Shown: positions 9,912 through 13,036 of the stretch, piece by piece
How positions within the stretch are numbered: position 1 is the stretch's first letter
Layout: the number at the start of each line of letters is the position of its first letter
Assembly (NCBI RefSeq): GCF_900129395.1
Contig: NZ_FQVP01000003.1
Coordinates: 496,001-560,000, forward strand
From: Pseudosulfitobacter pseudonitzschiae
GTDB lineage: Bacteria > Pseudomonadota > Alphaproteobacteria > Rhodobacterales > Rhodobacteraceae
DNA length: 64,000 nt
Direction of reading: 5' to 3'
Made by a program: the position numbers and the translations under genes
Notes under the pieces: model-generated
Database searches by the model: none
What the model saw: only the letters and a program-made list of their open reading frames with translations
Told to the model about the DNA's origin: nothing

Positions 9912-10957
9912 TGGGGAAACAGATGATATTTGACGGGCACAACGATGCGCTGATGCGGTTGTGGAAGCACCAAGGCGACCCCGTGGCGCATTTTGCGACC
10001 GATGCAGGCCACGTGAACGCCGACGCCTGTCGCGCGGGCGGGATGGGCGGCGGGTTCTTTGCCATCTACAGTCCGGCCAGCCGCGCCCCGCATGCGGGCA
10101 ACACCGAGGTTACGGCCATCGAGCTTGAACCTCTGGACGATCCGCTGGATCAGGGATGGGCCTTGCAGGCAGCGATGGGGCAGGCGGGGATCGCCTTGCA
10201 ACTGGCCGATGCGGGCCTGATCGAGATTGTCACGCAGCCCGACCAGCTTGCGCGCGCGTTCATGGGCGATGCGTTGGCCTGTATCCTGCATCTGGAAGGC
10301 GCGGATTGCATCGACGCCGATCTGCTGGCGCTGGATGTGCTGCATGGTGTTGGCCTGCGGTCGCTGGGGCCGGTCTGGTCGCGCAACAATATCTTTGGCC
10401 ACGGCGTGCCGTTTGGCCACTTCCGTGATCCTGATCAGGGCCCGGGTCTGACCGACGATGGCAAGCGTCTGGCCGCGCGTTGCGGCGTGCTGGGGATCAT
10501 GTTGGACACCAGTCATATCACCCTGAAAGGGTTCGAAGACATTGCAAACATGGGCCAGCCCGTTGTTGCCACCCATTCGAACGCATGGGCGCTGTGCCCG
10601 TCCACGCGCAACCTGACCGACGCGCAATTGCAGGTCATCGCCCAAAGCGGCGGCATTGCGGGGCTGAACTTTGCGCCGCCGTTTCTCAGCGACGAGGGCT
10701 GGAAGACGTGGCGCGTGGGGCTGGATGCCTGCATTCGCCATCTGGATTATATGGTCGCGCATCTGGGCGAGGATCACGTGGCGCTGGGCAGCGATTTCGA
10801 CGGCGCGCGGATGCCCGACGGGATCGCGTCGGCAGCCGACTTGCCGGTGTTGGTCAAGGCGATGGAAGACGCAGGGTTTGGCGCGGAATTGATCGCCAAG
10901 ATCTGCCACGAAAACTGGCTGGGGTTTCTCGGGCGGCATCTGGAAAAAAGCGCATGA
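9911..10957 (+). CDS. Membrane dipeptidase family (peptidase M19)
   Basis: A 348-residue M19 enzyme, related to renal dipeptidase, a two-zinc hydrolase of dipeptides or related amides. Metal ligands are visible in 'FDGHNDAL' (His10, Asp12), 'LDTSH' and 'ATHSNAWAL', and the C-terminal 'ALGSDFDGARMP' carries the conserved Asp. It lacks a signal peptide, so it is probably cytoplasmic. Its stop and the CIA30 start overlap as ATGA. The true substrate could be a modified dipeptide or an amide rather than a peptide. Confidence 0.9.
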   Translation: MGKQMIFDGHNDALMRLWKHQGDPVAHFATDAGHVNADACRAGGMGGGFFAIYSPASRAPHAGNTEVTAIELEPLDDPLDQGWALQAAMGQAGIALQLADAGLIEIVTQPDQLARAFMGDALACILHLEGADCIDADLLALDVLHGVGLRSLGPVWSRNNIFGHGVPFGHFRDPDQGPGLTDDGKRLAARCGVLGIMLDTSHITLKGFEDIANMGQPVVATHSNAWALCPSTRNLTDAQLQVIAQSGGIAGLNFAPPFLSDEGWKTWRVGLDACIRHLDYMVAHLGEDHVALGSDFDGARMPDGIASAADLPVLVKAMEDAGFGAELIAKICHENWLGFLGRHLEKSA

Positions 10958-11088
10958 AGGTGCTGCATCCCGATTGGGAGTATGTTGCCGACGGTGTTAT
11001 GGGCGGCGTGTCGCGCGGGCAGGCGGGTCCAGCGCAGGTTGCGGGCCGCGCGGCCATGCGTCTGACGGGGGCGGTCAGCACGGACAAC
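10954..11088 (+). pseudogene. CIA30-domain protein, 5' fragment (split by insertion sequence)
   Basis: First 45 codons of a CIA30 (complex I intermediate-associated protein 30) type gene: 'WEYVADGVMGGVSRGQ' and 'GAVSTDN' are the family start. Reading then enters the insertion sequence and stops at 11116. Joining residue Asn45 directly to the codon at 12716 restores frame and the family sequence 'STDN-GGGFIQMAFDL', giving a 151-residue intact protein. The start overlaps the M19 stop (ATGA), so the gene was the third in this operon. Confidence 0.9.
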
Positions 11089-11290
11089 GTCCTATGTCGG
11101 GAAAATCTGGCTGCTTAGGTCAGCAGGTCATGGGGCATCCAGCGAACCGGATGCCCTGTTACGTTTGCCCAGACGGGCTCTGCCGTCAAGAAATGATCTC
11201 TTCCATAGCAAACACAGGGTACGCGCGATGGCGGCCCTCACCGTCCTCAATACGAGATCCCAAATCCCAAGCAGAAGGCCCGAACATTAT
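11089..11290 (-). ncRNA. Predicted bridge/seek guide RNA region of the IS element
   Basis: The 202 bases between the transposase stop and the element end hold no gene. IS110-family elements encode a structured RNA that pairs with target and donor DNA; in the IS1111 group it lies downstream of the transposase, as here. A perfect 8-bp hairpin GGGCATCC / GGATGCCC with an 8-base loop is at 11133-11156. The RNA should be on the transposase strand. Its limits and guide loops are not determined. Confidence 0.45.
11096..11116 (+). repeat. Subterminal inverted repeat of the IS element, left in window
   Basis: Begins GTCGGGAA and continues to GGCTGCTT; pairs with 12689-12708 read on the other strand at about 16 of 21 positions. 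It starts 7 bases inside the inferred element end. Confidence 0.75.
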
Positions 11291-12580
11291 CTACGAGGTC
11301 AGCGAACTGCCTCCACGGCTGCTACAGAGAGAGGTCCTTCCGCCTGGGCTCACCCCTTCGAAGAAGGGGCGATAGGGTGCGCCGTTTTTGACGACGGCGT
11401 GTACAGTGCGCGCCATCTTGGCCGCTATCGCCGTATAGGCCTTGCGACGCAGATGCGCGTTGTGTCGATCCTTTGAGATGTAGCGCTCGAACTTGTCCCG
11501 GAAGCTGTTGGTCCGCTTTAGCACGGCGGTCTGACCGGCCATCCAAAGCGTGCGCCGCAAACGGGCGTTGCCATACTTCGAGATCCGGCTCTGGCCGCGG
11601 AACATGCCGGATTGCGTTGTGGCGAGGTCCATGCCGCAGAACTTCAGGAACTGTCGATGGTGCCGGAAGCGACGCAAGTCACCGGCCTCGGCCAGGATGG
11701 TCATGGCGTTGATCGGGCCGATGCCGGGAATGGTCGTCAGCAGTTGATAGTCGGGGAGATCGGACAGAAGCTCGACGGCCCGTGCCTCGATCTCATCACG
11801 CTGTCGGATCAGACTGCGGCCCTCGGCTAACACGAGACGGAACATGCGGACCGCATCGGAGTCCGGGTGAACCGGCAAGCCTACAGATTCGACCGCCGTG
11901 TCGTAAATGTCTGAAAGCATACGTTCTTTGGAAACCTTGCGGCCGACAACATGCCAAGCATCGGCGACGAAAGCCTCCCGGTCCATAGCCTTGATTATGT
12001 GTGGTGTGGGATACTTCTCAAGGAATGCGAGAAACCAGTCGGTGCGGGAACTGCGGTGAAAGCGCTCCGCCTCGGGGAAATAGAGCGGCAGGTAATGCGT
12101 GAGGATGCGGTGCCACAGCTCAGTCTTCGAGCGCGAAACGATCTCGTGGGTCTTCGACAGTTCCTGGATGTCGGCTTTCCCGGTCACCAGCGGATCATGG
12201 AAGAACTGCACTGCCCCGATCTCCAGCATATGCAGAATGACCTGGGCGTCCTTGGGATCATTCTTGTCCCAGCTGTTGTGCAGAGCCTCGCGCGTTCGGG
12301 CCAAGCCAACGGAAGAGACAAGCTTCAGGTCGAACCCGGCTAGGCCGAGGTGGTGGGCCAAGGCACGGTGATAATTACCGGTCGCCTCAAACCCGATCCG
12401 TACCGGCAGTTCATAGCTGGCGAGAGTGGTGGCCAAGCGCTGAAAATCCTCCAGCGTGTTCGTAATCGTCAGTCGGCGGCGGCGCTTTTTGCCCGGAATG
12501 CTGATCAGCACCTCATGTCGATGCTTGGAAATGTCGATGGCGACCAACACGGTCGAAAGGGTAGCATAGGTAGCGGTCAT
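11291..12580 (-). CDS. IS110-family transposase (DEDD/serine type)
   Basis: A 429-residue transposase. The N-terminal RuvC-like DEDD domain has Asp16 ('VAIDISKH'), Glu65 ('GFEATGNY') and Asp108/Asp111 ('KNDPKDAQ'), with the spacing of known IS110 enzymes. The C-terminal transposase_20 domain has 'IPGIGPINAMTILAEAG' (about 284-300) and the serine-containing block 'SRISKYGNARLRR' (about 331-343). Such enzymes act with a guide RNA to insert circular donor DNA. ATG 12580 follows GAGGAG at good spacing; the frame runs on to 12646 without support. It looks intact, so the element may be active. Confidence 0.95.
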   Translation of the reverse strand: MTATYATLSTVLVAIDISKHRHEVLISIPGKKRRRRLTITNTLEDFQRLATTLASYELPVRIGFEATGNYHRALAHHLGLAGFDLKLVSSVGLARTREALHNSWDKNDPKDAQVILHMLEIGAVQFFHDPLVTGKADIQELSKTHEIVSRSKTELWHRILTHYLPLYFPEAERFHRSSRTDWFLAFLEKYPTPHIIKAMDREAFVADAWHVVGRKVSKERMLSDIYDTAVESVGLPVHPDSDAVRMFRLVLAEGRSLIRQRDEIEARAVELLSDLPDYQLLTTIPGIGPINAMTILAEAGDLRRFRHHRQFLKFCGMDLATTQSGMFRGQSRISKYGNARLRRTLWMAGQTAVLKRTNSFRDKFERYISKDRHNAHLRRKAYTAIAAKMARTVHAVVKNGAPYRPFFEGVSPGGRTSLCSSRGGSSLTS

Positions 12581-12688
12581 AGCCGGTCTCCTCACAGTGT
12601 GGTTATGCAAAACCACTGTTGAGACCTGAGACCCGGTTATGGCCACCCGCTGTGCAATTTAAAGGCTGCGCAGGCGGCCATAACCTAC

Positions 12689-12708
12689 AAACAGCCTTTC
12701 TTCCCGAC
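12689..12708 (-). repeat. Subterminal inverted repeat of the IS element, right in window
   Basis: Read on the minus strand: GTCGGGAAGAA then AGGCTGTTT. Partner of 11096-11116. It ends 7 bases from the point where the CIA30 frame resumes. Confidence 0.75.
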
Positions 12709-12715
12709 GTGCTAT

Positions 12716-13036
12716 GGTGGCGGATTTATCCAGATGGCGTTTGATCTGGCAGAAGATGCCGGCGGATGGACCGGTCTGGAGCTGGACGTTTACGGCAACG
12801 ATGAACGCTATGACCTGCGCCTGCGCACCACGCGGTTGACCCGTGCGTGGCAGTCCTTCCGCACCGAGTTCGTGGCGACGGCGGCGTGGACCACGATCAA
12901 GGTGCCTTTTGATGCGCTCGAAGCCTATCGGACGGACGCCAGTTTCGATGCGTCCGAGTTGCGCCGTGTCGGCGTGGTCGCGGTGGGTCGTGAATTCGCG
13001 GTTGATGTGGCGGTCAGCGGCGTGCGGTTGTACTAG
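12716..13036 (+). pseudogene. CIA30-domain protein, 3' fragment
   Basis: The remaining 106 codons of the broken gene, opening with 'GGGFIQMAFDL' and containing 'TGLELDVYGNDERYDLRLRT', typical of the CIA30 beta-sandwich. In eukaryotes CIA30 helps assemble respiratory complex I; bacterial members are uncharacterised. There is no other frame damage, so loss is due only to the insertion and would be reversed by clean excision. The TAG stop shares the palindrome CTAG with the stop of the convergent enolase-family gene. Confidence 0.9.

What the first reader, a model, noticed from the sequence alone, without database searches (positions are those of the whole stretch)
11089..12715. IS1111-type element with symmetric subterminal repeats and a likely target-guiding RNA region
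The CIA30 reading frame fixes both ends of the element to within a base or two. The imperfect repeats lie exactly 7 bases inside both ends. The transposase has DEDD residues with the IS110 spacing (Asp16, Glu65, Asp108, Asp111) and appears intact. A 202-base non-coding tail downstream of the transposase carries a perfect 8-bp hairpin (11133-11156). IS1111-group elements carry their bridge/seek RNA there. The guide loops could be read and compared with the flanking CIA30 sequence.
Basis: partly seen in the sequence, partly recalled or inferred. Interest (0 to 1): 0.75.

Follow-up and report, generated by a model that had tools for sequence, protein, structure and literature searches.

The report
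RNA-guided jumping gene hitting rival transposases
A bacterial jumping gene carries a structured RNA that appears to steer it, by base pairing that tolerates synonymous codons, into the catalytic Asp-Asn-Gly codons of other jumping genes; in this genome it has landed in an ordinary gene that has the same three codons.

Summary
The element is real and intact: one copy, 1,627 bp, minus strand, 429-aa DEDD transposase, inserted in a CIA30 gene. Seventy aligned sequences support its four stems by covariation. Its two loops hold four guide words in the IS621 order: GCCGU and GAUAAU for the target, AGGACG and UGCUAUG for the element's own ends. Relatives sit mostly at GA[C/T]-AA[C/T]-GG, the Asp-Asn-Gly of the rve/DDE catalytic motif of IS3, IS481 and IS30 transposases. 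Wobble-tolerant bases fall on the synonymous positions. A 48%-identical relative changed donor guides together with its ends. ISEc21 was already reported to target this motif, so the targeting is a known kind; the 3'-located, IS110-ordered RNA and the codon-degenerate guide are the variant. "IS1111-type" is only partly right. Expression and activity are untested, and 8-9 guided bases do not explain the strong preference for transposases.

The parts
11088..12714 (-). IS110-family element, donor-derived segment (left end at 12714, right end at 11088); target-derived core base at 12715
   Evidence: End-to-end relatives; empty CIA30 sites; boundary set by uninterrupted target copies
11291..12580 (-). 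transposase/recombinase gene, 429 aa, ATG at 12580 with GAGGAG upstream, stop at 11291-11293
11190..11348 (-). predicted bridge/seek RNA (two-loop guide RNA); transcript ends not mapped
11333..11348 (-). stem P1, 5' arm, inside the tnp coding end
   Evidence: covariation; position
11315..11319 (-). left target guide LTG GCCGU (same sense as target top strand GCC|RT)
11295..11313 (-). hairpin P2 inside the target loop
11285..11291 (-). right target guide RTG GAUAAU(G), complementary to C|RTTRTC with G.U allowed at both R positions
11266..11281 (-). stem P1, 3' arm
11254..11259 (-). stem P3, 5' arm, closing the donor loop
11242..11247 (-). left donor guide LDG AGGACG, same as the element's right end
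11216..11238 (-). hairpin P4 inside the donor loop
11204..11210 (-). right donor guide RDG UGCUAUG, complementary to the element's left end
11195..11200 (-). stem P3, 3' arm
12701..12708 (-). left subterminal repeat GTCGGGAA
11096..11103 (-). right subterminal repeat (inverted)
12635..12685 (-). leader hairpin in the left end, covarying; probably control of tnp expression, no guide set
10954..11087 (+). CIA30 gene, 5' part (ends ...Thr-Asp and the first two bases of the Asn codon)
   Evidence: PF08547, E 3.6e-4, 21.1 bits, under its 24-bit cut-off
12715..13036 (+). CIA30 gene, 3' part (last base of the Asn codon, then Gly-Gly-Gly-Phe...)
   Evidence: PF08547, E 2.1e-8, 34.8 bits

Best explanation
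This is an IS110-family insertion sequence that moves by RNA-guided recombination. Its right-end region makes a two-loop bridge RNA that begins inside the transposase gene's 3' end. The first loop reads the target: GCCGU pairs with one strand and GAUAAU with the other, together reading GCC-R|T-T-R-T-C, which on the other strand is GA(C/T)-AA(C/T)-GG. Uracil or guanine sits at the Asp and Asn synonymous positions, so both codons of each can pair. The second loop reads the element's own joined ends (AGGACG and TAGCA). A circular donor would then recombine at a two-base core (R-T in the target, G-T in the donor). The target's core base stays at the left junction and the donor's at the right, as IS621 chemistry predicts. 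Because Asp-Asn-Gly surrounds the second catalytic Asp of many rve/DDE transposases, the clade lives mostly in rival insertion sequences; the window copy sits in a CIA30 gene that has the same codons. Shown: gene, ends, insertion sites, RNA covariation, guide matches. Inferred: transcription, RNA-protein complex, circle, recombination.
For: RNA structure: RNAalifold on 70 sequences (the window's and 69 relatives) finds the four stems (with some further pairs), 18 of 38 pairs with two-sided changes. For the named structure 91.5% of cells pair and 110 cells change on both sides, against 24.1 shuffled (0/500 as high) and 3-22 when slid. The window's own minimum-energy fold contains the same four stems. 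Guides: required to pair with every synonymous target form, each of the four words occurs once in the 161-nt RNA, in the order LTG-RTG-LDG-RDG; the leader holds one LTG-like word and no RTG, LDG or RDG; the last 102 bases hold only the element's own right end. Among 73 extracted RNAs LTG is present in 71, RTG in 69, LDG in 73, RDG in 68 (the 73 were chosen by an anchor word, six elements left out); over all 79 elements GATAAT is in 73 and GCCGT followed by GATAAT in 70. All four words in order occur in 10 of 20,000 dinucleotide shuffles (word lengths chosen after seeing them). Targets: -2 C 80/81, -1 C 81/81; +2 T 78/78, +3 T 75/78, +4 G/A 62/16, +5 T 77/78, +6 C 78/78. Interrupted genes: rve in 49 of 62 N-halves, rve_3 in 60 of 71 C-halves; IS3 model in 41, IS481 in 29, IS30 in 1 of 62 (overlapping). 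Synonymous indifference: Asp GAC/GAT 59/16 at insertions against 24/6 in 30 intact DNG genes (P=1); core base G/A 46/35 against Asn AAC/AAT 14/16 (P=0.39). Donor guides: L349 (48% aa identity) has right end AGTCC with LDG AGUCC, and left end TAGT with RDG ACUA, while its target words are unchanged and its C-side flank is rve_3. Left-end base 4 pairs with its RDG base in 75 of 76 located (G-C 54, A-U 20, G.U 1; 3 of 79 not located). Core polarity: targets with an uninterrupted homologue at 90% or more agree 6 of 6; IS621 top strands are cut 3' of the core (PMC11208158 passages).
Against: No expression or activity data. The RNA's folding energy is not unusual (z -0.11). Taken singly the words are not rare: LTG in 17,693, LDG in 10,002, RTG in 3,994 and RDG in 1,759 of 20,000 shuffles. 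One named P3 pair fails in 52 of 70 rows and the outer P1 pairs in 18-22; 'further pair types' is not above shuffles (268/500). The G-C to A-U donor change is essentially one event on the tree plus a partial reversal in L011 (where L062 was mislabelled; corrected). The target is constant across the clade, so target-guide covariation cannot be tested; positions -4 to -10 show no match that would survive correction (smallest P 0.013 of 8 tests). CCGTTRTC occurs 340 times in this genome (396 for the reversed control) and 42 sites match a longer consensus (control 24), so the guide words do not explain why most insertions are in rve genes. The six concordant core bases rest on four different homologues; at 80-90% identity 5 of 15 disagree, and by left flank alone at 90% or more 6 of 7 agree. 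In L349 the base after AGUCC does not match the core, and the right-hand pairing is shorter. L348's right end (CGGGC) does not match the usual LDG. The covariance model did not reach L125 (46%). Sites L048, L058, L086 depart at +3 or +5 and L099 at -2.
Confidence: 0.82

Rival explanations
1. The guide RNA is the structured leader in the left end (as in IS621), and the 3' RNA has another role.
For: The leader folds better than all 200 shuffles (z -3.88) and its hairpins covary.
Against: In the window's leader one LTG-like word and no RTG, LDG or RDG is found, while all four occur once and in order in the 3' RNA; the leader's second hairpin is predicted to pair with the tnp ribosome-binding site, so translation control is the simpler role.
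Confidence: 0.06
2. The transposase protein, not the RNA, selects the target; the conserved words are protein-binding sites.
For: Preference for rve genes is stronger than 8-9 bases predict; the target words hardly vary, so target pairing is not tested by covariation.
Against: Four guide words in IS621 order and position; donor words changed with donor ends in L349; wobble bases at the synonymous positions and no codon bias there.
Confidence: 0.07
3. On the guided site the element inserts at many CCRTTRTC places; the excess in transposases is survival in dispensable genes (compatible with the main reading, but against rve genes as the evolved target).
For: 340 CCGTTRTC sites in the genome; non-transposase insertions exist (window CIA30, L012 subtilase, L123 DUF1173 gene).
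Against: G000 has 8 rve matches in all against 340 sites, so survival alone would have to remove nearly all other insertions.
Confidence: 0.3
4. A standard IS1111-group element with a top-then-bottom seekRNA in the tail around the 11133-11156 hairpin.
For: RNA downstream, short subterminal repeats, covarying hairpin.
Against: Guide words lie upstream of that hairpin and in bottom-then-top order; transposase length and end extensions do not fit.
Confidence: 0.04

Closest known systems
ISEc21 (IS110 family, PMC11187229)
   Same: Targets the codons of and around the second D of DDE in certain IS3 transposases by an RNA with bottom-then-top guide order (section 12 read).
   Different: Its RNA is upstream of tnp and its transposase is 358 aa by the paper; ours is downstream, overlaps tnp, 429 aa. 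ISEc21's letters were not at hand, so kinship was not tested.
IS621 bridge RNA (PMC11208160, PMC11208158)
   Same: Two guide loops, LTG-RTG-LDG-RDG order, two-base core ending in T, core polarity, DEDD plus Ser-Gly catalytic residues.
   Different: IS621's RNA is in the left end and it targets REP sequences; its solved chain has 328 residues; core CT rather than RT/GT.
IS1111-group seekRNA elements (ISEc11, ISPa11, ISKpn4; PMC11187229)
   Same: Downstream guide RNA and subterminal inverted repeats.
   Different: Top-then-bottom order, 7/3 end extensions, usually 11-13 bp repeats, 330-350 aa transposases (from the paper).
ISRel25 and ISMex12 (names from the plasmid annotation)
   Same: 74% and 68% identical transposases. 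ISRel25 (L127) has the same ends and target on both sides; for ISMex12 (L117) only the left end and left target were seen, its right end being broken by another IS.
   Different: No paper naming either was found.

Membership tests
IS110 family | DEDD RuvC-like domain plus Transposase_20 domain | tested here: met
   (NF033542 226.6 bits, cut-off 140)
IS110 family | Catalytic D,E,D,D and Ser-Gly | tested here: met
   D16, E65, D108, D111, S324-G325
IS110 family | Site-specific insertion without target duplication | tested here: met
   empty sites; 81 insertions at one word
IS110 family | Circular or joined-end intermediate | tested here: inconclusive
   only indirect: L116 is a head-to-tail tandem with junction GGACGTAGCAC
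Bridge RNA (IS621 type) | Two guide loops with LTG-RTG and LDG-RDG pairing | tested here: met
   (by complementarity and covariation); donor change in L349
Bridge RNA (IS621 type) | RNA expressed and bound by the recombinase | not testable with these tools
   no expression data
IS1111 group | Guide RNA downstream of tnp | tested here: met
   (it starts inside the tnp end)
IS1111 group | Subterminal inverted repeats (7-17 bp in PMC11208160; usually 11-13 bp in PMC11187229) | tested here: inconclusive
   8 bp, then imperfect
IS1111 group | End extensions of 7 (or 6) and 3 bases | tested here: not met
   6 and 8, counted from 12714 and 11088
IS1111 group | Transposase 330-350 aa | tested here: not met
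   429 aa
IS1111 group | Top-strand guide 5' of bottom-strand guide | tested here: not met
   bottom-strand guide (LTG) first

The most novel reading that the evidence does not exclude
The guide acts as a codon-degenerate probe: it reads the peptide Asp-Asn-Gly of the DDE catalytic core by placing wobble bases on the synonymous positions. One RNA can thus find transposases of several IS families in many genomes, and a clade that reaches a second class of the phylum has kept the same target words while its transposases diverged to 48% identity and its own ends changed. If ISEc21 reached the same motif independently, the catalytic motif of rival transposases is a recurrent home for RNA-guided elements.
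Probability: 0.5. Interest if true: 0.8.

Novelty: new variant of a known kind. Interest (0 to 1): 0.6.

Why it matters
It proposes all four guides of an IS110-family RNA from sequence comparison alone, shows that such an RNA can overlap the recombinase gene's end, and gives natural evidence, without an experiment, for where strands are exchanged. It suggests that RNA-guided recombinases can hold on to a protein motif through synonymous variation, a useful design rule for programmable recombinases, and a way for one mobile element to spread by disabling others.

Tried and rejected
Rfam: no match in 10800-13000 up to E 1. Class-wide protein search at E 1e-40: 3 of 385 genomes, own included. Mutual information between target/donor positions and tail columns was dominated by the two clades and gave nothing usable for the target. 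A first reading of the Asn codon bias (AAC 73/0 at insertions against 14/16 in intact genes, P=6e-11) as guide discrimination was rejected: that base is the element's own, as uninterrupted copies show. One search used a mis-oriented pattern and is not used. The regular expression mis-read the RDG of some rows (L062, L105) and its LDG column is not used; recounted. I considered the leader as guide RNA and a plain IS1111 label; both set aside. A tree with named IS1111/IS110 reference transposases was not made because reference letters were not at hand. Rahnella relative L125 (46% aa) shows the target words by eye, but its right end was not found and the model did not reach it. The model matched 17 of 38 sources, nearly all of them homologous elements left out of the alignment; that is consistency, not independent proof. 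Literature: nine searches; the only report of targeting this motif that I saw is ISEc21. Papers: PMC11187229 outline, abstract, sections 6, 8, 9, 12, 13 and passages; PMC11208160 section 12 and passages; PMC11208158, PMC3281130 and PMC1525189 passages only; figures and supplements not seen.

Full report
WHAT IS THERE. The element lies on the minus strand. The genome (G000) has one copy. Close relatives match it end to end at about 81-89% DNA identity in genomes of the same family and on plasmids, more distant ones at 70-77%. The gene is a 429-aa transposase with both IS110 domains; D16, E65, D108, D111 and S324-G325 are in place. It interrupts a CIA30 gene: the halves match PF08547 at E 3.6e-4 (under the family cut-off) and 2.1e-8, and in 5 of 5 congeners the flanks are contiguous.

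EXACT ENDS. Among 81 insertions compared (73 plus 8 added; a few may be copies of one event), the first left-end base is A in 35 and G in 46, while the base after the right end is G in 78 of 78 with enough flank. In 30 intact DNG rve genes of the same family the corresponding Asn codon is AAC in 14 and AAT in 16. The 6 insertions whose target has an uninterrupted homologue at 90% identity or more (four different homologues) all agree: the left base equals the target's base (A in 4, G in 2) and the right G is the element's. The clearest is L101 against L292, identical flanks in one genome, target base A, right base G. At 80% or more, 16 of 21 agree; by left flank alone at 90% or more, 6 of 7. 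The donor-derived segment is thus 12714->11088. This is what IS621 chemistry predicts: the top strand is cut 3' of a two-base core whose T is nearly invariant (PMC11208158 passages). The second core base is T in 81 of 81 left ends. L116 is a natural head-to-tail tandem whose junction reads GGACGTAGCAC.

TARGET. In element orientation the site is CC-R|T-T-R-T-C. On the opposite strand it reads GA(Y)-AA(Y)-GG, in most cases in frame as Asp-Asn-Gly. Of 73 deduplicated insertions, 62 had at least 25 open codons on the N-side and 71 on the C-side. rve was found in 49 of 62 N-halves; rve_3 in 60 and rve_2 in 44 of 71 C-halves. NCBIfam calls IS3 in 41, IS481 in 29 (overlapping) and IS30 in 1 of 62. 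Exceptions seen: the window (CIA30), L012 (subtilase), L072 whose N-half matches a sugar-kinase domain just under its cut-off, L055 whose C-half matches nothing, and, among the 8 added, L123 in a DUF1173 gene. Seven diverged plasmid relatives at 62-67% aa identity with both ends seen (L115, L118-L123) keep the same site.

THE RNA. Conservation in the 3' region starts inside tnp. An alignment of 70 sequences (70 distinct of 73 extracted; six elements lacking the anchor word were left out; the set includes L047 and L051, whose 5' parts are rearranged) gives the four stems by RNAalifold, 18 of 38 pairs with two-sided change, covariation term -3.7 of -31.89 kcal/mol. For the structure I named: 91.5% of cells paired, 15 pairs and 110 cells with two-sided change, 0 of 500 shuffles as high, slid versions at 3-22 cells; 'further pair types' was not above shuffles (268/500), and one P3 pair fails in 52 of 70 rows. 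The window's own fold contains the four stems, though it is not more stable than shuffles (z -0.11). A covariance model finds the RNA in homologous elements left out of the alignment and at E 3e-12 in a genome of another class of the phylum; 4 of 398 phylum genomes (own included) and 1 of 78 in that genome's order have it. It did not find it in L125.

THE GUIDES. The first loop has GCCGU on its 5' side and GAUAAU on its 3' side; the second has AGGACG and UGCUAUG. Requiring pairing with all synonymous target forms, each word occurs once and in order in this RNA; the window's leader has one LTG-like word and none of the others. In the 73 extracted RNAs LTG is found in 71, RTG in 69, LDG in 73, RDG in 68; over all 79 elements GATAAT is in 73, and GCCGT followed by GATAAT in 70. 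All four in order turn up in 10 of 20,000 dinucleotide shuffles, though singly the words are common there (LTG 17,693, LDG 10,002, RTG 3,994, RDG 1,759); word lengths were chosen after the fact. Both Asp codons are used as in intact genes (59/16 against 24/6, P=1), as are both Asn codons judged by the core base (46/35 against 14/16, P=0.39). So the U (RTG) and G (LTG) at those places do seem to read both synonyms. That is the codon-degenerate reading; it rests on pairing rules and natural sites, not on an assay. The 30 control genes come from 98 control loci, of which 53 gave a motif (30 DNG, 22 DRG, 1 DHG) and 45 gave none.

DONOR TEST. Left-end base 4 and its RDG partner are G-C 54, A-U 20, G.U 1 (L011), mismatch 1 (L091), of 76 located; 3 of 79 were not located. 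On the tree this is essentially one joint change and one partial reversal (made with an earlier table in which L062 was mislabelled). A better test is L349, 48% identical: its right end is AGTCC and its LDG AGUCC; its left end is TAGT and its RDG ACUA; its target words are unchanged and its C-side flank is rve_3 (4e-16), its other flank carrying an HTH_21 match under the cut-off. The base after AGUCC does not match the core there. Against: L348 has right end CGGGC with the usual LDG, and L031 and L047 have AGGCC.

WHAT REMAINS OPEN. CCGTTRTC occurs 340 times in G000 (396 for the reversed control), 42 sites fit a longer consensus (control 24), and G000 has 8 rve matches. The guide words alone therefore do not explain why transposases dominate; extra specificity or survival bias is needed. 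Positions -4 to -10 of the target show no convincing match to the RNA.

KNOWN OR NEW. ISEc21 was reported to target the second D of DDE in IS3 transposases with an upstream RNA (PMC11187229 section 12). The present clade does this with a downstream RNA that overlaps tnp, IS110 guide order, 6/8 end extensions and a longer transposase. It is best called an IS110-family subgroup with a right-end bridge RNA, not a standard IS1111 element.

Noticed in passing
window 12581-12714 (-): The left-end leader folds into a long hairpin (12635-12685) and a second one predicted to pair with the tnp ribosome-binding site; both covary in relatives. Probably blocks translation from read-through transcripts.
   Followed up: partly
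L116 (Sinorhizobium meliloti plasmid): Head-to-tail tandem of the element with RE-LE junction GGACGTAGCAC.
   Followed up: partly
L065, L070, L062, L103: By eye the two flanks look like halves of different transposase genes (for example IS481-like N-half, IS3-like C-half), as if copies in two genes had recombined.
   Followed up: no
L012 and L123: Non-transposase insertions: a subtilase gene at Asp-Asn-Gly in frame and a DUF1173 gene, where the site lies antisense.
   Followed up: partly
L018, L020, L029, L030: Loci that match only about the first 75-180 bases of the element: left-end remnants or other elements sharing the leader.
   Followed up: no
G000:C12:9135-9155: A longer-consensus target site inside an rve match of this genome (C12:8915-9232) is unoccupied although the single copy sits in CIA30.
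   Followed up: no
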